A DNA stretch of 64,000 nt. Source: Pseudomonas antarctica (GTDB lineage: Bacteria > Pseudomonadota > Gammaproteobacteria > Pseudomonadales > Pseudomonadaceae). The notes beneath the pieces are model-generated. The model was given only the letters and a program-made list of their open reading frames with translations, searched no databases and was not told the DNA's origin. The stretch's first letter is position 1, and every line of letters starts with the position of its first letter. The stretch spans positions 6,324,001-6,388,000 of the forward strand of contig NZ_CP015600.1 of assembly GCF_001647715.1 (NCBI RefSeq). Direction: 5' to 3'. Made by a program: the position numbers and the translations under genes. Positions 56,805-64,000 of the stretch are shown here, piece by piece.

Positions 56805-57200
56805 ATGCTGACCCTGGGAAACATCTTTGTGTTGATGCTGCTGGCGACTGGCGCCGCTTGGGTGTGGCACAACCACGGCCTGCGCGAGCGGGCGCTGGAG
56901 CGGGTCAAGCAACATTGCGCCAAGCTCGATATCGAACTGCTCGACGGCGCGGTGGCGTTGAAACGCATCGGTTTTGTGAAGGATGCCAAGGGTCGGCGGC
57001 GCTTGGCACGTATCTATAACTTTGAATTCACCGTGACCGGCGAAACCCGCCATCCCGGGACTATCACCCAGTTCGGCGCCCACAGCGCGCAGATTGAACT
57101 GGCGCCCTACCCGTTCGAGATCAAGACGCCGCTGCCCAGCGCGGAAGTGATCGAGCTAAGCCAGTGGCGCCAGGACCACGCCACCAAGACGCGTCACTGA
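56805..57200 (+). CDS. DUF3301 membrane-anchored protein
   Basis: This 131-residue protein has one N-terminal membrane segment (about 3-22, M-L-T-L-G-N-I-F-V-L-M-L-L) followed by a soluble basic domain with C-A-K-L-D-I-E-L-L-D and R-I-Y-N-F-E-F-T-V-T-G. This matches the DUF3301 family of gamma-proteobacteria, whose role is unknown. The ATG at 56805 with GGAG upstream is used; the long open frame continuing upstream is antisense to pdxY. It overlaps the convergent GTPase gene by 7 bases. Confidence 0.87.
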   Translation: MLTLGNIFVLMLLATGAAWVWHNHGLRERALERVKQHCAKLDIELLDGAVALKRIGFVKDAKGRRRLARIYNFEFTVTGETRHPGTITQFGAHSAQIELAPYPFEIKTPLPSAEVIELSQWRQDHATKTRH

Positions 57201-58168
57201 CGACAGGCGGCCAGCGCGCTCTGCAATGCGACTACGTCCTGTGGCTCGCTGAAAATCAATTCAATGCGCGAATCGCGGCGCCACTCGCTGGGTTGCCAGA
57301 CGAGTGGGCTTTTATCCACAGCGTTGGCGCTGACCCACCCATGGCGGCTGTGGATAACCAGTTTGGCGCGGCGCCATGCAAGACTTGTCAGCCAATGGGA
57401 CAGGCGCCCGGTTTCGAATTGCTGGCTCGGGTGCCAACGCCAACCGATGCTCCAGCCACCCTCTTGAGCCTGGCTCAGGCAGATGGGCAGTGTGGGATCG
57501 CTCCAGATGGCTGGCATCTGCGCCAAGCCTTTGGGCACATCGAAGTTATCCACAGGGGCGCCAGCTTTGGTCTGGAGGCCCGGCAACTGCGCGAGCGGCA
57601 AGTGCGCCTGGCGGGTCCAGTAAAGCGGGCAGTCGGGTAATTGTCTTTCGACGGCTTGGCGCTGCGCGGTATCCAGTGTTTCGTCCTTGTTCAATACCAG
57701 CAGCCCGGCGCTGGCCAAGGTCTCGCGCTGCGCTTGTGGCAAGGGTTTGCCCGCCGCCAATGCCTGGGCATCCAGCACCAGTACACAAGGCTGGACCGCC
57801 AGCACGTTTTGCCAGGGTGCTTCGCGCAATTGCTTGAGCAATTGTGCGGGATGACCCAAACCCGAGGGCTCGATAAACAACCGATCCGGTTTAGCCTTGC
57901 GCAATAAGCGGCCCAGGCCTACCTGGAACGGTGCACCATTCACACAGCACAAACAGCCACCGGCGACTTCGCCCAGGGCAATGCCATCGTCGTCCTGGGT
58001 GAGTAACGCCGCATCCAGGCCAATCTGCCCGAACTCATTGATCAGTACCGCCCAGCGCTCGTTGGCCGGGCGTTGGGCCAGCAGGTGCTTGATCAGGCTG
58101 GTCTTGCCGGCGCCCAAAGGCCCGGCAATCACGTGAGTAGGAATGTTCTGCAGCATGATAGGCATCAT
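57194..58168 (-). CDS. COG0523 (CobW/G3E) GTPase
   Basis: This 324-residue G3E P-loop GTPase is a possible metal chaperone. It has Walker A G-P-L-G-A-G-K-T-S at residues 16-24, the CxCC-type metal motif C-L-C-C at 72-75 and the base-recognition N-K-D near residue 158. The C-terminal domain is short. It is the fourth gene of the dksA2-zigA-DUF1826 operon under a Zur box, so it most likely works in zinc shortage, delivering zinc to a client protein; the client is unknown. Several in-frame ATGs (58168, 58165, 58156) make the start uncertain. Confidence 0.87.
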   Translation of the reverse strand: MMPIMLQNIPTHVIAGPLGAGKTSLIKHLLAQRPANERWAVLINEFGQIGLDAALLTQDDDGIALGEVAGGCLCCVNGAPFQVGLGRLLRKAKPDRLFIEPSGLGHPAQLLKQLREAPWQNVLAVQPCVLVLDAQALAAGKPLPQAQRETLASAGLLVLNKDETLDTAQRQAVERQLPDCPLYWTRQAHLPLAQLPGLQTKAGAPVDNFDVPKGLAQMPAIWSDPTLPICLSQAQEGGWSIGWRWHPSQQFETGRLSHWLTSLAWRRAKLVIHSRHGWVSANAVDKSPLVWQPSEWRRDSRIELIFSEPQDVVALQSALAACRQ

Positions 58169-58200
58169 TCAGACCGTGTAGAGAGCTTGATCCTACCCGG

Positions 58201-58848
58201 TTATGCCAGCCAATCCAGCGTCAGGATCAACCGTCGCTCATCGGCCTTGAGCGCCGGCGAGCGGTGAATCAGGCCATGGGCTTCGTTGCCGTGCCACTTG
58301 GTGCCCTTGAGCAAGGCCACCTCGCCACAGTCGATTTGCTCAATGCGCTCGGTGGGTTCGGCATCCGGTTGGCTCAGTTTTCGGCGGTCCATCACCCCTT
58401 CGCGCAACCACTGGCTACCGATTCCGGCGTAGGTGGTAATCAACCGAACGGGTACATGGTCAACGTGAAAACGTGGGCACATGGCCTTGTCCAACAGGCG
58501 CAAACGCACGCCAATACGCTTGGCACCGAGCAGGCAGGCGAACGCGCTGACCAGCCACGACACATCGGCGATAAACCCTTCGTAGCCTTCAAGATCACGG
58601 CAACTTGACGCCAAACCCTGCAAATTCGGCTCGGCGTCTTCGTTGTTGAGTTCGATCACCAGGGATTCGGCCAAAGGCTCATTCAGCGCCACCAGCAAGG
58701 CGCCGAATTCGGCAATATGATGGGGCAATTGGCGCCGCCATGTCGCCAGGTTTACGCCTTCTTCCAGAATATCGGACAGTGCCAGCGGGGTTTCCCCGCG
58801 GGTCTGACGTATCACGGGACGCAGGGGGATAACCGGTGCCAACATCAC
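58201..58848 (-). CDS. DUF1826 protein of the zinc-starvation operon
   Basis: This 215-residue soluble protein belongs to DUF1826, a family found next to COG0523 GTPases. It is coupled to zigA by a four-base ATGA overlap. A conserved-looking core has C124, F-H-V-D (His128, Asp130), V-R-L, then G-T-K-W-H-G-N-E near residue 183 and L-I-H-R-S-P (His195) followed by Arg205/Arg206. This H-x-D...H...R order is like the iron site and 2-oxoglutarate arginine of Fe(II) dioxygenases, but could also be a zinc or other metal site. No function is established. Confidence 0.85.
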
Positions 58849-60050
58849 GCGACCTCTTCATACCAAGGGCCAAAGGGGTCGGCCAGCAAGCGCCAACTTT
58901 CGACACCCAGAGCCATTTCGTCATCCGTGAGCAAACAGGCGTCCAGCTCGGCGCGCATCTGGCTGAAGTCGATGTTTTGCCCGATAAACACCAGCTCCTG
59001 GCGGCAATCGCCGGTGCTCAGCTGCCAGTTGCCCATGATCGCCGCCACGCTTTCTTCGTCCTGAGGCCATTGGCTTTTCGGCACAAAACGCCACCAGCGC
59101 CCAGCAAAGCCATGGCGCATCAATCCTCCGGCCTGAGACCAACTGCCCGCATCCTGATGCTTGCTGGCCAGCCAGAAAAAGCCTTTGGAGCGCAGCAGTT
59201 TGCCGTTTACCCACGGACGGTCGATGAAGTTGAAAAAGCGCTGCGGATGAAATGGGCGGCGCGCACGATAAGCCGTGGAAGCGATGCCGTATTCTTGCGT
59301 TTCCGGCACATGTTCACCGCGCAATTCCTGCAACCAGCCAGGGGCCTGGGCAGCGCGTTCGAAGTCAAAGCGGCCGGTGTTCAGGATCTTGTTAAGCGGC
59401 ACCTCACCCATGACCATCGGAATGATTTCTGCTTGGGCGTTGAGGCGCTCGAGGATGGCCATCAGTTCTTCGCGTTCGCGGCTGCTGATCAGGTCGATCT
59501 TGCTGATCAAGATCACGTCGGCGAACTCGATTTGCTCGATCAGCAGGTCGGTGATCGAGCGTTCATCTTCTTCGCCGAGGGTTTCGCCGCGTGAGGCCAG
59601 GCTTTCAGCGGCCTGGTAGTCGAGCAGGAAGTTCATGCCATCCACCACGGTGACCATGGTGTCCAGGCGCGCAATATCGGCCAGGCTCTGCTCGTTTTCA
59701 TCACGAAAGGTGAACGTTTCTGCCACGGGCAACGGCTCGGAAATACCAGTGGATTCGATCAACAGGTAATCGAACCGACCTTCCTTGGCGAGTTTTCCGA
59801 CTTCTTCCAGCAAGTCTTCACGCAAAGTGCAGCAGATGCAGCCGTTGCTCATTTCTACCAGTTTTTCTTCGGAGCGGTTCAGGGTGACATCACGCTGAAC
59901 CTCGCTGCCGTCAATGTTGATTTCGCTCATGTCGTTGACGATCACCGCCACCCGCAGGTTTTCGCGGTTGCGCAGGACGTAGTTGAGCAGCGTGCTTTTA
60001 CCGGCGCCTAGAAAACCGGACAACACGGTAACGGGGAGACGATCTGGCAT
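58845..60050 (-). CDS. zigA: zinc-responsive COG0523 GTPase ZigA
   Basis: This 401-residue G3E GTPase has Walker [11 protein letters not shown] at 11-20, the metal-binding C-I-C-C at 71-74, E-S-T-G-I-S-E-P near residue 99 and S-K-I-D near residue 183. The C-terminal CobW_C domain (about 260-390) carries R-P-F-H-P-Q-R-F and several histidines. ZigA homologues are induced by zinc starvation and are thought to move zinc to client enzymes. It starts 27 bases after dksA2 and shares its Zur-controlled promoter. Confidence 0.92.
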
Positions 60051-60077
60051 CAGGTATTCCTCATCAGGGTTGGCCGG

Positions 60078-60482
60078 TCAAATCGCCCGTTTATGGCGTT
60101 CGCGCAGCTCTTCACGTTCTTTGGCTTCGATACTCAAGGTGGCGGTGGGGCGCAGTAGCAAGCGTTGCAGGCCAATGGATTCGCCAGTGTCACGGCACCA
60201 GCCGTATTCGCCGCGGGCCAGCAGTTCGAGGGCGTCGTCGATCTTGTCCAACAGCTTCTTTTCCCGCTCAAGCAGGCGTAGTTGCCATTGGCGCTGTTCT
60301 TCGGCGCTGCCCATATCGGCGGGGTCGCTATTGGTTTCCTGCTCACGCAGCACCAGGAACTGGCCCTCAATGCGCGCTTGCAGCTCAGTACGCTGGGCAA
60401 GCAGCAATTCACGGAAGAACCTTTGCTGGGCTTCATTCATGTAGTTGGCGGGCGGTTGGGCCAGCAGGTCTTGTTCAGTCAT
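60078..60482 (-). CDS. dksA2: zinc-independent DksA paralog
   Basis: This 134-residue RNA polymerase-binding factor has a long coiled coil (about 20-90) with the acidic tip D53-P-A-D56. The four-cysteine zinc finger of DksA is missing: only Cys96 remains (G-Y-G-type context E-Y-G-W-C-R-D-T-G). The alanine of the usual D-x-x-D-x-A tip is Gly58. DksA2 proteins replace DksA when zinc is scarce. It is first in the operon, with a perfect Zur palindrome 34 bases upstream of its ATG. Confidence 0.94.
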   Translation of the reverse strand: MTEQDLLAQPPANYMNEAQQRFFRELLLAQRTELQARIEGQFLVLREQETNSDPADMGSAEEQRQWQLRLLEREKKLLDKIDDALELLARGEYGWCRDTGESIGLQRLLLRPTATLSIEAKEREELRERHKRAI

Positions 60483-60515
60483 AGGAAGCGGGTCACGGGT
60501 CAGGCTGTGGTTTTA

Positions 60516-60530
60516 TGTTATAGTATAACA
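60516..60530. promoter_or_regulatory. Zur box, dksA2 / small secreted protein
   Basis: TGTTATA G TATAACA is a perfect palindrome with 7-base arms that matches the gamma-proteobacterial Zur core GTTATAnTATAAC. It lies between divergent genes and overlaps a TATACT-like -10 on the dksA2 side. Confidence 0.88.
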
Positions 60531-60610
60531 ACACAAATAAGCTAATCCCGACTTGCTCACCACGACGAAGGGCGCAATGCTTGAGCACTTCCCTTGCCCC
60601 GAGAAACGCT

Positions 60611-60979
60611 ATGAAACGCCTGTTGTACGCCCTGTTATTGGCAGCGGCAGGACCTGCCTGCGCCCAAATGCCAAGCCTGTTGGCGAACTGCACGCGCAGC
60701 GCCAACCTGCTGGCCTGCGTGGATCCGTTGGGGAATGCCTACAGCGTGGCGACTGTCGGCAGCACCACGTACTTGCGCGGTTTCGAGGTGATCGGCAAAC
60801 GCTACTGGGCACAAACCAACAGCCGCTATGGGCAGCTGACGTTCTTTACTGGGTTAGCGTCCGACGGAGAGGCGTGGGTCGGCTACACGCGACGCGTGGG
60901 CTGGACCACCCTCAACCGGTTTTCCAGCTCAGGTGGCGCCAGTGCCAAGTTCACGTGCAGCCGTATGACCGGCTGTTAG
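60611..60979 (+). CDS. small secreted four-cysteine protein
   Basis: This 122-residue protein has a signal peptide ending at A-C-A-Q (about residue 19), so it is exported. The mature part has four cysteines, two near its start (N-C-T-R-S, A-C-V-D) and two at the very end (F-T-C-S-R, T-G-C), which suggests two disulfides closing the fold. It is rich in aromatic and glycine residues (W-V-G-Y-T-R-R-V-G-W). It diverges from dksA2 across the Zur box and occupies the place of an unnamed zinc-regulon gene in P. aeruginosa. The function is unknown. Confidence 0.82.
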   Translation: MKRLLYALLLAAAGPACAQMPSLLANCTRSANLLACVDPLGNAYSVATVGSTTYLRGFEVIGKRYWAQTNSRYGQLTFFTGLASDGEAWVGYTRRVGWTTLNRFSSSGGASAKFTCSRMTGC

Positions 60980-62187
60980 ACCTGGCCGTTCTTCTGCTCT
61001 TGAACCCAGGCCATGTAGCTGTTCATCGGTGGGTTCTTCTCGAAGTATTTTTTCAATCCCTCAAACAGGCCATCCGCCACCGCCTGTTGATGACGCGCAG
61101 TCACCAACCGCTGGGCGTCCTGGGTATTAGAGATAAACCCGGTCTCGACCAGAATAGAGGGGACGTCCGGTGATTTAAGTACCGCAAAACCAGCCTGCTC
61201 CACGCGCTTCTGGTGCAGCGTGGTGATGCTCTGCAGGCTGCCCAACACCGAGCTGCCCAGTTGCAGGCTGGAGGCGATGGTGGCGTTCATCGACATATCG
61301 AGAATCACCCCGGCCAACATCGGGTCCTTGTCCTTGAGATTGAGCAAGGTCGTGGCGCCCAACAGGTCCGCGCCGTTTTCGCGCTGCGCCATAAAGCGCG
61401 CCGTAGCGGAAGTTGCGCCCCCTTCAGACAACGCATACACCGAGGCACCGGATGCCGTGAGACGTGGCGCGGCGTCGGCATGCACCGAGATAAACATATC
61501 GGCCTTGTGCTGGCGCGCAATGTCCACACGCTTGCGCAGCGGCACGAAGAAGTCATCGTTGCGCACCAGTTTCACGTCAAAGCCCTTCTCACGCTTCAAG
61601 CGTTTGGCCAGCAATTGGGCGATCGATAGCACCACGTCTTTTTCGCGCTGGCCCCTGGAGCCGATGGCGCCAGGGTCTTTACCGCCGTGGCCGGGGTCAA
61701 CCACCACGATGATGTCGCGCTTGGGATGCGCTTTGTCTACCGGCGCGACCAGAGGAGGCGGTTCAGCGGCTATTTGGCGCGGGGCATGAGTGGCGTTGGT
61801 CAGGTCGAGCACCAGGCGATGACCTTGGCCATCCTGGGGCGGCAATAAAAAGCTGTTGAGCTGCATCGGCGCGGCCAGGTCCAGCACGATGCGTGTGTCG
61901 CCTTTGCCGAAATGCCCGGAGCGGATCGAAGTAATCCCGCTGTTCTTCAATGCCAGCTGAGAAAAATCCCCCGACAGCCCGGCGCCGCTCAGGTCGATGA
62001 TCAAACGTTCCGGTGAGGTCAGGGAAAAGGTCTTGTATTGCACCGGGCCGCTAAGGTCGAACACCAGCCGCAGTTTATCGTCCGAGCGCCACAGGCGCGC
62101 ATTGCGGATCTGCGTGGCGTAGGCCCCCAAAGGCAAGGTGAACAGGGGACTGACCAGCAGCAGGTTGAGGAGCTGACGTCTGTGCAT
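60976..62187 (-). CDS. N-acetylmuramoyl-L-alanine amidase (AmiC/AmiA type)
   Basis: This 403-residue periplasmic zinc amidase cleaves peptide stems from peptidoglycan. It begins with a twin-arginine-like export signal (H-R-R-Q-L-L-N-L-L-L), then an AMIN domain (about 25-130) and an Amidase_3 domain (about 165-385) with the zinc-site motifs V-D-P-G-H-G-G-K-D-P-G, R-E-K-D, S-V-H-A-D-A and V-E-T-G-F-I-S-N. A Zur box lies 84 bases upstream, so this copy is probably a zinc-starvation paralog. It overlaps the convergent small secreted gene by 4 bases. Confidence 0.93.
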   Translation of the reverse strand: MHRRQLLNLLLVSPLFTLPLGAYATQIRNARLWRSDDKLRLVFDLSGPVQYKTFSLTSPERLIIDLSGAGLSGDFSQLALKNSGITSIRSGHFGKGDTRIVLDLAAPMQLNSFLLPPQDGQGHRLVLDLTNATHAPRQIAAEPPPLVAPVDKAHPKRDIIVVVDPGHGGKDPGAIGSRGQREKDVVLSIAQLLAKRLKREKGFDVKLVRNDDFFVPLRKRVDIARQHKADMFISVHADAAPRLTASGASVYALSEGGATSATARFMAQRENGADLLGATTLLNLKDKDPMLAGVILDMSMNATIASSLQLGSSVLGSLQSITTLHQKRVEQAGFAVLKSPDVPSILVETGFISNTQDAQRLVTARHQQAVADGLFEGLKKYFEKNPPMNSYMAWVQEQKNGQV

Positions 62188-62270
62188 GACATATACCGCA
62201 AATAGAGGAGCGTCCCTGCTCGACATGACTGAAGAAAGGCTGGAGCAGAAAAATCATCGTCGATTCAATA

Positions 62271-62283
62271 GTTATAATATAAC
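62271..62283. promoter_or_regulatory. Zur box, amidase / folE2
   Basis: GTTATA A TATAAC is a perfect palindrome with 6-base arms, matching the site at 60516. It is placed between the divergent amidase and folE2 genes, 33 bases before the folE2 ATG. Confidence 0.87.
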
Positions 62284-62315
62284 ATGTCTTTTTATTTCCA
62301 ACGATGGACCTGCCC

Positions 62316-63212
62316 ATGAATGCGCTGACTCTGCCGGATATTGCCGCGCAGGCTTCACGCCAAGCTGTGCCGCTCGACTGGGTAGGCATGTGCGGCATTG
62401 CCCTGCCGATCCTCATCGACGGCCAACGCTTGACCGCCACTGCCGATGCGGGCGTCAGCCTGGACGATGGCGAGGCCCGTGGCATTCATATGTCACGCCT
62501 GTACCTGGCCCTGGAAATGCTCGACCAACAGCCTCTTACGCCTGCGCTTCTGCGTACTCTACTTGAGCGCTTTCTTGAGAGTCATGAAGGTTTATCTAAG
62601 AACGCCTACCTGCGTATCCACGCGGATTTGCTACTCAAACGGCCTGCGCTGGTCAGCCCTTTAACCGGCTGGAAAGGCTACCCGGTGAGCATCGAAGCGC
62701 GCCTGGAAAACCAGATGTTCCACGTGGAACTAAAAATTGACGTTACTTACTCTTCCACCTGCCCTTGCTCGGCCGCGCTCGCCAGGCAGTTGATTCAGCA
62801 GCAATTTCTCGAAGATTTCGCCAACACACCACTGCAGCACGAGGATGTTCTGACGTGGCTTGGCAGCGCCAACGGCATCGTCGCCACGCCCCACAGCCAA
62901 CGAAGCAGCGCAGAACTGTCCATCCAGCTGGAAGCCAACCAGTCCACCTTGCCCCTAACCGACCTGATCAACGACGTTGAAACCGCCCTCGGCACTGCCG
63001 TGCAAACCGCTGTGAAACGTGCGGACGAACAAGCCTTCGCCCTGGCCAACGGGCAGAACCTGATGTTCTGCGAAGACGCCGCCCGCCGCCTGAACCTCGC
63101 CTTGAAACGCTCGGATGCCGTCAAAGCCTTCCACTTGAAAGTGATCCACGCCGAAAGCCTGCACGCGCACGATGCCGTGGCTGAAAGCCGCTGGACGAGA
63201 GACTCTGCATGA
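62316..63212 (+). CDS. folE2: GTP cyclohydrolase FolE2 (type IB)
   Basis: This 298-residue enzyme makes 7,8-dihydroneopterin triphosphate, the first folate step, without the zinc needed by FolE. The catalytic cysteine is Cys149 in S-T-C-P-C-S; R-G-I-H-M-S-R-L near residue 55 and P-V-S-I-E-A-R near residue 123 are family marks. A Zur box controls it, so it backs up FolE in zinc shortage. The ATG at 62316 is preferred to one 12 bases upstream. It overlaps the next gene by four bases (ATGA). Confidence 0.95.
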   Translation: MNALTLPDIAAQASRQAVPLDWVGMCGIALPILIDGQRLTATADAGVSLDDGEARGIHMSRLYLALEMLDQQPLTPALLRTLLERFLESHEGLSKNAYLRIHADLLLKRPALVSPLTGWKGYPVSIEARLENQMFHVELKIDVTYSSTCPCSAALARQLIQQQFLEDFANTPLQHEDVLTWLGSANGIVATPHSQRSSAELSIQLEANQSTLPLTDLINDVETALGTAVQTAVKRADEQAFALANGQNLMFCEDAARRLNLALKRSDAVKAFHLKVIHAESLHAHDAVAESRWTRDSA

Positions 63213-63877
63213 TCACCTGTAACGCTTTGCGCTGGGGCGCCCCCGGGCAACCGCTCACACCGGCGCTGGATTTGAAGCTGGAAAAAGGCAGCCTCACCGG
63301 CATCATCGGCGCGAATGGCACAGGCAAAAGCAGCCTGCTCAAGGTCATTGCCGGCCTGCAAAAGCCGCTGACGGGCAACGTCAGCGTGGAGGTTCCACGC
63401 CGCGGCGGCCTGTCATTCCTGCCCCAGCAACAACATTTGGATCGCCAGTTCCCGATCAGCCTGCAAGAGTTGGTCGCCGCCGGTTTCTGGGGCACCCAGC
63501 TCACTCCGCAACACCGTAGCCAACGGCTGCAAGCGGTGCTGGAAGACTGGTGCCTCAGTGGTCTGGAACACCGTCCGTTGATGGCGCTGTCCGGCGGCGA
63601 ACTGCAACGCGCCCTGCTCGCTCGCATGAGCCTGGCCGAAGCGCCAGTCCTGCTTCTCGACGAACCTCACGCCGCCCTCGACGAAGAAGGCCAGGCGCTC
63701 TGCTGGAAACACATTCACGCCTGGCACGATGAAGGCCGCACACTGATCGTCGTCTGTCATGACTTGGCGTCGGTGCGTCACCACACCCAGCAAGTGGTGC
63801 AGATCAAAAGCACCGGCTGCCTATTCGGCCCCAGTAAAGAGCTGATCCGCCCGCAACCGCACATGCAGGTGGCCTGA
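63209..63877 (+). CDS. metal ABC transporter ATPase (ZnuC-like)
   Basis: This 222-residue ABC ATPase has Walker A G-A-N-G-T-G-K-S-S near residue 34, the signature L-S-G-G-E-L-Q-R-A near residue 130, Walker B L-L-L-D-E-P and the H-loop V-C-H-D. It is similar to the ATPases of zinc/manganese/iron ABC-3 importers. Overlapping start/stop codons couple it to folE2 and to the permease gene, so it is inside the Zur-controlled operon. Zinc uptake is the likely job, but zincophore or other-metal import is possible; its solute-binding protein is not in view. Confidence 0.88.
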   Translation: MITCNALRWGAPGQPLTPALDLKLEKGSLTGIIGANGTGKSSLLKVIAGLQKPLTGNVSVEVPRRGGLSFLPQQQHLDRQFPISLQELVAAGFWGTQLTPQHRSQRLQAVLEDWCLSGLEHRPLMALSGGELQRALLARMSLAEAPVLLLDEPHAALDEEGQALCWKHIHAWHDEGRTLIVVCHDLASVRHHTQQVVQIKSTGCLFGPSKELIRPQPHMQVA

Positions 63878-64000
63878 TGCACTTCGCCGCCCATCTGTGG
63901 ATGCCATTCCTCGACTTTGTCTTTATGCGCCGCGCGCTCATCGGCGGGCTGGTCCTCGCTTGCAGCACCGCGCCGCTGGGCGTGTTTCTGATCCTGCGCC
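63877..64000 (+). CDS. metal ABC transporter permease (3' truncated)
   Basis: The first 41 residues are visible before the window ends. It starts with an ATG that shares one base with the ATPase stop. The text (M-P-F-L-D-F-V-F-M-R-R-A-L-I-G-G, then a hydrophobic segment G-L-V-L-A-C-S-T-A-P-L-G-V-F) matches the start of ABC-3 family permeases such as ZnuB. It should pair with the ATPase encoded just before it. Confidence 0.85.
   Translation, partial: MHFAAHLWMPFLDFVFMRRALIGGLVLACSTAPLGVFLILR

What the first reader, a model, noticed from the sequence alone, without database searches (positions are those of the whole stretch)
57194..64000. Compact zinc-starvation island with two divergent Zur promoters
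Two perfect Zur-type palindromes (60516-60530 and 62271-62283) each control a pair of divergent units. Together they cover dksA2-zigA-DUF1826-cobW, a small secreted protein, an amidase, and folE2 fused by overlaps to a metal ABC transporter. Zinc-free stand-ins (DksA2, FolE2), two COG0523 GTPases, import and cell-wall work sit in one block. It reads as a single adaptive program with several members of unknown role.
Basis: partly seen in the sequence, partly recalled or inferred. Interest (0 to 1): 0.8.

Follow-up and report, generated by a model that had tools for sequence, protein, structure and literature searches.

The report
Pseudomonas zinc-starvation gene island
This is the already described block of genes that Pseudomonas bacteria switch on when zinc runs out; the one new lead is that an unnamed gene in its middle looks like an iron-dependent oxygenase, which would tie zinc shortage to iron and oxygen chemistry.

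Summary
The 13-mers at 60517-60529 and 62271-62283 are the only exact matches to GTTATANTATAAC in the 6.6 Mb genome (about 0.007 expected). The two one-mismatch matches precede a TonB receptor gene and an L31 (rpmE2-like) gene. Each site lies between divergent genes. The right-hand operon runs past the window end: folE2, AztABC-like importer, hisI2, gamma-carbonic anhydrase, pyrC2. The amidase and HisI2 keep zinc ligands, so not all members are zinc-free.

The new part is DUF1826 (58201-58848). A confident AlphaFold model (pLDDT 94.5) matches only the Fe(II)/2-oxoglutarate oxygenase superfamily among the 50 PDB hits listed. H128-x-D130...H195...R206 is kept in 34 of 34 full-length sequences. 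Zur-like boxes precede it in 23 of 33 other loci (0.03 expected); zigA adjoins it in 19 of 33. Sequence profiles do not support the link, and activity is untested. The small secreted protein, often named glutamine synthetase, is not one; an exact box precedes it in 29 of 30 loci examined, but its role is unknown.

The parts
57194..58168 (-). Second COG0523-type GTPase (CobW nucleotide-binding domain only), last gene of the left operon
   Evidence: Pfam cobW 143.1 bits, no CobW_C match; GCLCC motif
58201..58848 (-). DUF1826 protein, predicted Fe(II)/2-oxoglutarate oxygenase fold; H128, D130, H195, R206 as proposed active site
   Evidence: Pfam DUF1826 220 bits; model pLDDT 94.5; Foldseek and VIA-align; conservation 34 of 34 full-length sequences, own included
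58845..60050 (-). ZigA, COG0523 zinc metallochaperone GTPase; overlaps DUF1826 by 4 nt
   Evidence: NCBIfam NF038288 684.7 bits, cut-off 600
60078..60482 (-). DksA2, zinc-independent DksA; 1 of 4 zinc-finger cysteines left
   Evidence: 196.2 bits to solved chain 4ijj (DksA/TraR family protein); alignment to 1tjl shows C, T, S, A at the four Cys positions
60517..60529 (.). Zur-type palindrome GTTATAGTATAAC between dksA2 (35 nt) and the small secreted gene (82 nt)
60611..60979 (+). 122-aa protein with signal-like start, PA5537 family, four invariant Cys in the mature part; role unknown
   Evidence: 686 proteins at E<=0.001, no Pfam or NCBIfam match; invariant C27 C36 C116 C122 in 31 aligned sequences
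60976..62226 (-). AMIN + Amidase_3 amidase (AmiA/AmiC type) with a twin-arginine start region; zinc ligands kept
   Evidence: Pfam; alignment to 4bin, 8c2o, 8c0j; RRQLL after a possible internal start
62271..62283 (.). Zur-type palindrome GTTATAATATAAC between the amidase (45 nt) and folE2 (21 nt)
62304..63212 (+). FolE2, zinc-independent type GTP cyclohydrolase
   Evidence: NCBIfam NF010200 330.8 bits, cut-off 215
63209..63877 (+). ABC ATPase, AztA-like; overlaps folE2 by 4 nt
   Evidence: NCBIfam AztA 166.3 bits, below cut-off 220
63877..64000 (+). Start of the ABC-3 permease (ends at window-frame 64743); beyond the window follow the substrate-binding protein 64755-65633, HisI2 65630-66043, gamma-carbonic anhydrase 66040-66600, PyrC2 66604-67941
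   Evidence: L003

Best explanation
This is the conserved Pseudomonas zinc-starvation island. Zinc-loaded Zur sits on two shared operator sites and shuts four transcription units at once. When zinc falls, Zur leaves and all four are made: dksA2-zigA-DUF1826-cobW to the left of site 1, the small secreted protein to its right, the amidase to the left of site 2, and folE2-aztABC-hisI2-cam-pyrC2 to its right. The products replace zinc enzymes (DksA2, FolE2, probably PyrC2 and the gamma-carbonic anhydrase), import metal, and direct what zinc is left (ZigA, second GTPase), while the Tat-type amidase and HisI2 are extra copies of enzymes that still seem to need zinc. My proposal for the unnamed member is that DUF1826 is an Fe(II)/2-oxoglutarate-dependent hydroxylase that works with ZigA, most likely on a protein substrate. 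Shown by sequence: sites, genes, conservation and linkage. Shown by others in P. aeruginosa: induction, and Zur binding at dksA2. Inferred: operon structure, the DUF1826 fold and active site (about 0.7), its activity (about 0.5), its substrate (unknown).
Against: No expression or binding was measured in this strain. For DUF1826: profile-profile comparison with 24 P4H-type sequences was not significant (probability 0.4, E 0.17), though the HxD motifs came out in register over 65 columns; of seven control comparisons six scored worse and one, zigA, scored better (E 0.078, 26 columns). None of 28 members matched a 2OG Pfam family. TM-scores over the 50 listed hits are only 0.34-0.48 by query length. 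Model coordinates could not be inspected, so the geometry of the proposed triad was not checked. An invariant Cys four residues before the HxD is not part of the usual site. 10 of 33 loci lack the box within 2.5 kb and 4 of 33 have neither box nor adjacent zigA. In the 2025 proteomics preprint the PA5534 change is not significant in one method (p 0.423) and p 0.056 in the other. Genome counts are not corrected for relatedness.
Confidence: 0.82

Rival explanations
1. DUF1826 has the oxygenase fold but is not an enzyme: its H128, D130, H195 site, perhaps with the invariant C124, holds zinc and hands it to or from ZigA, as a chaperone or reserve.
For: C124 is invariant in 34 of 34 full-length sequences; the gene is linked to ZigA and Zur-like boxes; a 2025 preprint guesses 'another Zn-sparing paralog or Zn-chaperone' for PA5534 (passage).
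Against: R206, at the place where 2OG enzymes bind the co-substrate (recalled), is kept in 35 of 35; a plain zinc holder has no need of it.
Confidence: 0.25
2. DUF1826 is a small-molecule hydroxylase that supports uptake of a metal complex, as the Fur-controlled dioxygenase CciO is needed for the transporter CciT in Caulobacter.
For: A dioxygenase-transporter partnership exists for iron (PMC11870441 passages); in G046 DUF1826 follows znuCB-like genes behind a Zur-like box, and in G182 zigA-DUF1826 follows znuCB-like genes.
Against: The commonest neighbour found is ZigA (19 of 33). Neighbours were compared only with this island's own proteins, so metallophore genes were not looked for.
Confidence: 0.2
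3. The palindromes are chance or belong to another regulator, and the genes are neighbours without common control.
For: Sites with up to two mismatches are fewer than in the reversed control (17 against 55).
Against: Exact sites 2 against 0.007 expected; an exact box before the small gene in 29 of 30 loci; published induction of the same block.
Confidence: 0.02

Closest known systems
P. aeruginosa PA5532-PA5541 zinc-starvation cluster
   Same: dksA2, zigA, DUF1826 (PA5534), a second COG0523, small protein PA5537, AmiA, FolE2, gamma-carbonic anhydrase, PyrC2; Zur sites at both equivalent intergenic places (passages)
   Different: Here an AztABC-like importer and HisI2 stand between folE2 and cam; no such genes are listed for the PAO1 cluster in the passages seen
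P. protegens Pf-5 PFL_6178-PFL_6184 cluster and the P. fluorescens regulon of Haas 2009
   Same: ABC importer in the cluster; folE2, amiC, can, pyrC2, hisI2, dksA and yciC/yciC2 in the zinc-limitation response; two COG0523, FolE2, AmiA, DksA, HisI, Cam, PyrC
   Different: None seen in gene content; the Pf-5 paper itself (Lim 2013) was not seen, only cited in others
Fe(II)/2-oxoglutarate oxygenases of the prolyl-hydroxylase type (P. putida P4H 4j25, PHD2)
   Same: Predicted fold, HxD...H...R residues
   Different: No significant sequence-profile similarity; conserved H-R-S-P at the distal His and an invariant Cys before the HxD; Zur-like boxes
Caulobacter CciO dioxygenase
   Same: Metal-starvation-controlled, likely 2OG/Fe(II) dioxygenase beside metal homeostasis genes (passages)
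   Different: Fur and iron, TonB transporter partner; here Zur-like box and ZigA neighbour
AztABC zinc importer
   Same: AztA, AztB and AztC are the best NCBIfam matches of the three subunits
   Different: All three fall below the curated cut-offs; none of the five genes tested downstream matched an AztD model

Membership tests
Pseudomonas Zur zinc-starvation island | dksA2-zigA-DUF1826 operon and folE2 operon beside shared Zur boxes | tested here: met
Pseudomonas Zur zinc-starvation island | Zinc-dependent Zur binding and induction without zinc in this strain | not testable with these tools
   Published only for relatives (passages)
Fe(II)/2-oxoglutarate oxygenase superfamily (DUF1826) | Double-stranded beta-helix fold | tested here: met
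Fe(II)/2-oxoglutarate oxygenase superfamily (DUF1826) | HxD...H facial triad and distal Arg for 2OG (roles recalled) | tested here: met
   H128, D130 in 34 of 34 full-length; H195, R206 in 35 of 35; triad geometry not inspected
Fe(II)/2-oxoglutarate oxygenase superfamily (DUF1826) | Detectable sequence-profile relationship | tested here: not met
   hhalign probability 0.4 against 24 P4H-type sequences, one of seven controls scored better; no 2OG Pfam match among 28 members. Not a strict requirement of so diverse a superfamily
Fe(II)/2-oxoglutarate oxygenase superfamily (DUF1826) | Iron- and 2OG-dependent turnover | not testable with these tools
   needs purified protein
Zinc-independent DksA (DksA2) | Loss of the four-Cys zinc finger | tested here: met
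   C96 only; T, S, A at the others
Zinc-independent paralogs: amidase and HisI2 | Loss of zinc ligands | tested here: not met
   Amidase keeps H in DPGHGG, E in REKD, H in HADA and E in VETGF; HisI2 keeps DCDGD and ACHTGRPTC; ligand identity recalled, same conclusion in PMC2770081
AztABC zinc importer | Scores above NCBIfam equivalog cut-offs | tested here: not met
   AztA 166.3/220, AztB 232.8/280, AztC 271.1/350 bits
Glutamine synthetase (database name of the small secreted protein) | Glutamine synthetase domain | tested here: not met
   No Pfam or NCBIfam match at E<=0.001; 122 aa

The most novel reading that the evidence does not exclude
DUF1826 is a Zur-controlled Fe(II)/2OG hydroxylase, partner of ZigA, that hydroxylates a protein (a zinc-site protein, or a translation factor, as the P. 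putida P4H solved in complex with EF-Tu suggests) and so helps cells free or re-metal proteins when zinc is short. Zinc sparing would then depend on iron, oxygen and 2-oxoglutarate in many Pseudomonadota.
Probability: 0.35. Interest if true: 0.75.

Novelty: new member of a known kind. Interest (0 to 1): 0.42.

Why it matters
The island itself is a known adaptation. The DUF1826 assignment would give a testable biochemical role to a gene induced 57.5-fold in a znuA-deleted P. aeruginosa, which recent papers leave unannotated or describe as a metallochaperone and COG0523-like GTPase; in this window the protein has no GTPase domain match. It would add an oxidation step to the zinc-sparing response and offer a partner for COG0523 proteins, whose role has long been open.

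Tried and rejected

Print claims: 'DUF1826' occurs in 3 papers of the held library, and the matching passages do not call it an oxygenase; 'COG0523, dioxygenase, Zur, hydroxylase' together in none; '2-oxoglutarate, Zur regulon, oxygenase' in 3, of which one was seen in passages and concerns Fur and iron, the other listed one was not opened. Subscription papers were not searchable.

Full report
Observation. The window (60% GC) lies in a 6.6 Mb genome; among named database proteins close relatives of the small protein come from Pseudomonas canadensis, poae and orientalis. The eight genes of the finding are present with the expected domains. The two 13-mers GTTATAGTATAAC (60517-60529) and GTTATAATATAAC (62271-62283) lie 35 and 82 nt from the starts of dksA2 and the small secreted gene, and 45 and 21 nt from the starts of the amidase and folE2. 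They are the only exact matches in the genome. About 0.007 exact matches, and 0.49 with at most one mismatch, were expected from first-order statistics of the window; 2 and 4 were found. The two one-mismatch places stand before a TonB-dependent receptor gene (L006) and an L31 gene (L007, rpmE2-like by its sequence). At up to two mismatches the reversed control has more places (55) than the pattern (17); of the 13 places with exactly two mismatches one stands 32 nt before a ZrgA-family zinc uptake gene, the others were not taken as targets.

Extent. The operon starting with folE2 goes on past the window end: ABC permease (start codon at window 63877), ZnuA-type binding protein, HisI2, gamma-carbonic anhydrase and PyrC2, ending at window-frame 67941; neighbouring genes overlap or lie 3 nt apart, except for 11 nt before the binding protein. 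The ABC subunits are closest to AztA, AztB and AztC but below the curated cut-offs. A FUR-family protein, taken as Zur, is encoded elsewhere between a ZnuA gene and znuC/znuB-like genes, so this importer is a second system. Further copies exist for several members: one more HisI, one more Amidase_3 protein, two more proteins with the DksA-type finger, and three FolE1-type proteins.

Zinc-free or not. DksA2 keeps one of four finger cysteines. FolE2 scores 330.8 bits to its equivalog model (cut-off 215). PyrC2 has Gln where the dihydroorotase 3mpg has the first His of the metal motif; its closest solved relative 2gwn has Gln too. The amidase keeps the two His and the Glu zinc ligands and the catalytic Glu in alignment with AmiC 4bin, AmiA 8c2o and 8c0j, and HisI2 keeps the DCDGD and ACHTGRPTC motifs; ligand roles are recalled. 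Haas 2009 made the same distinction (passage). The amidase start region contains MHRRQLLNLLL, a likely twin-arginine signal; for P. aeruginosa AmiA the Tat route and a zinc-loading reason have been proposed (PMC11753293 passages).

Relatives of the small secreted gene. It was found in 56 of 198 family genomes, and loci were returned and examined for 30 of the 56. In 29 of 30, the own one included, an exact GTTATANTATAAC begins 76-113 nt upstream of the start chosen; the thirtieth (L064) has one mismatch at 44 nt. zigA is in the flank in 30 of 30 and dksA2 in 25; the divergent order was read by the script in 29 and is blurred by overlapping open frames in L064. NCBI names it glutamine synthetase, and so do Pederick 2015 and a 2018 review (passages); it has no such domain. 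It has a signal-like start and four invariant cysteines in the mature part, and in the window no histidine, so it is not an obvious zinc binder. Its model is poor and its role stays open.

Linkage of DUF1826. It occurs in 34 of 299 Pseudomonadota genomes, 35 matches. Leaving out the own genome and one fragment (G067) gives 33 loci. A Zur-like box with at most one mismatch lies within 2.5 kb upstream in 23 of 33, against 0.03 expected from dinucleotide shuffles; in nine of these it stands within 530 nt of the DUF1826 match with no zigA between. zigA is the adjacent gene in 19 of 33, counted by me from the rows; 29 of 33 have at least one of the two marks; L112, L121, L123 and L126 have neither, though L126 has zigA about 1 kb away. 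Strong ZigA matches (best E 1e-120 or better, counted by me from the table as 57 of 299) occur in 26 of 34 DUF1826 genomes and 31 of 265 others (Fisher P 4.6e-15, not corrected for relatedness).

What is known. All papers were seen as passages only. Haas 2009 lists this regulon for P. fluorescens and names DUF1826 in its Figure 4 legend; PMC5786701 states that a DUF1826 gene of P. fluorescens lies downstream of a predicted Zur site; Pederick 2015 gives the induction values and notes the Pf-5 cluster with its ABC importer; a 2018 review lists hisI2 and the rest for P. protegens; a 2025 preprint places Zur sites between PA5536/PA5537 and PA5538/PA5539, counts PA5534 among the enriched proteins (values 3.478, p 0.423, and 4.255, p 0.056) and calls it not annotated; PMC9431628 names PA5534 as a DUF1826 gene; PMC13083405 groups PA5534 with COG0523 GTPases, which the Pfam result for this window's counterpart contradicts. 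Zur binding at the dksA2 promoter was shown by others (PMC8531726 passage).

Verdict. The finding is correct and ordinary in its main claim. The open part worth pursuing is DUF1826 as an oxygenase arm of zinc sparing: predicted fold, residues and linkage are supported by computation; activity and substrate are not known.

Noticed in passing
L003:15441-17390 (window-frame about 71440-73389): Bufferin locus downstream: BufA2-type metallophore precursor (94.6 bits, cut-off 60), MNIO maturase BufB (381 bits, cut-off 310) and a DUF2063 protein; known kind of system near the zinc island.
   Followed up: partly
L047:1479-1491 (own genome C1:5724678): Two-mismatch Zur-like box GTTATAAGATTAC 32 nt before a ZrgA-family zinc uptake gene followed by an ABC ATPase gene; looks like the PA4063-type zinc operon.
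   Followed up: partly
L010:1501-1513 (own genome C1:721755) and L012:1501-1513 (C1:4022367): Two-mismatch Zur-like boxes at the start of a TonB receptor gene next to a PepSY_TM gene, and before an OprD-family porin gene; weak targets or chance.
   Followed up: partly
L114:6282-7501: zigA is read in two overlapping pieces with stop codons inside, while the adjacent DUF1826 is open; either a broken gene or a sequencing error.
   Followed up: no
L107:2936-6361 and L140:2362-10465: DUF1826 follows znuCB-like genes (L107), and zigA-DUF1826 follows znuCB-like genes with pyrC2, cam and cobW after it (L140), both with a one-mismatch Zur-like box; other arrangements of the same programme.
   Followed up: partly
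L065, L067-L074, L076-L079; L106: In these 13 small-gene loci folE2 follows without an amidase between; in L106, a longer stretch of the L068 genome, the two boxes are about 0.5 kb apart.
   Followed up: partly
window 58843-58848: DUF1826 begins with GTG immediately followed by ATG; the GTG overlaps the zigA stop and the ATG adjoins it, suggesting coupled translation.
   Followed up: no
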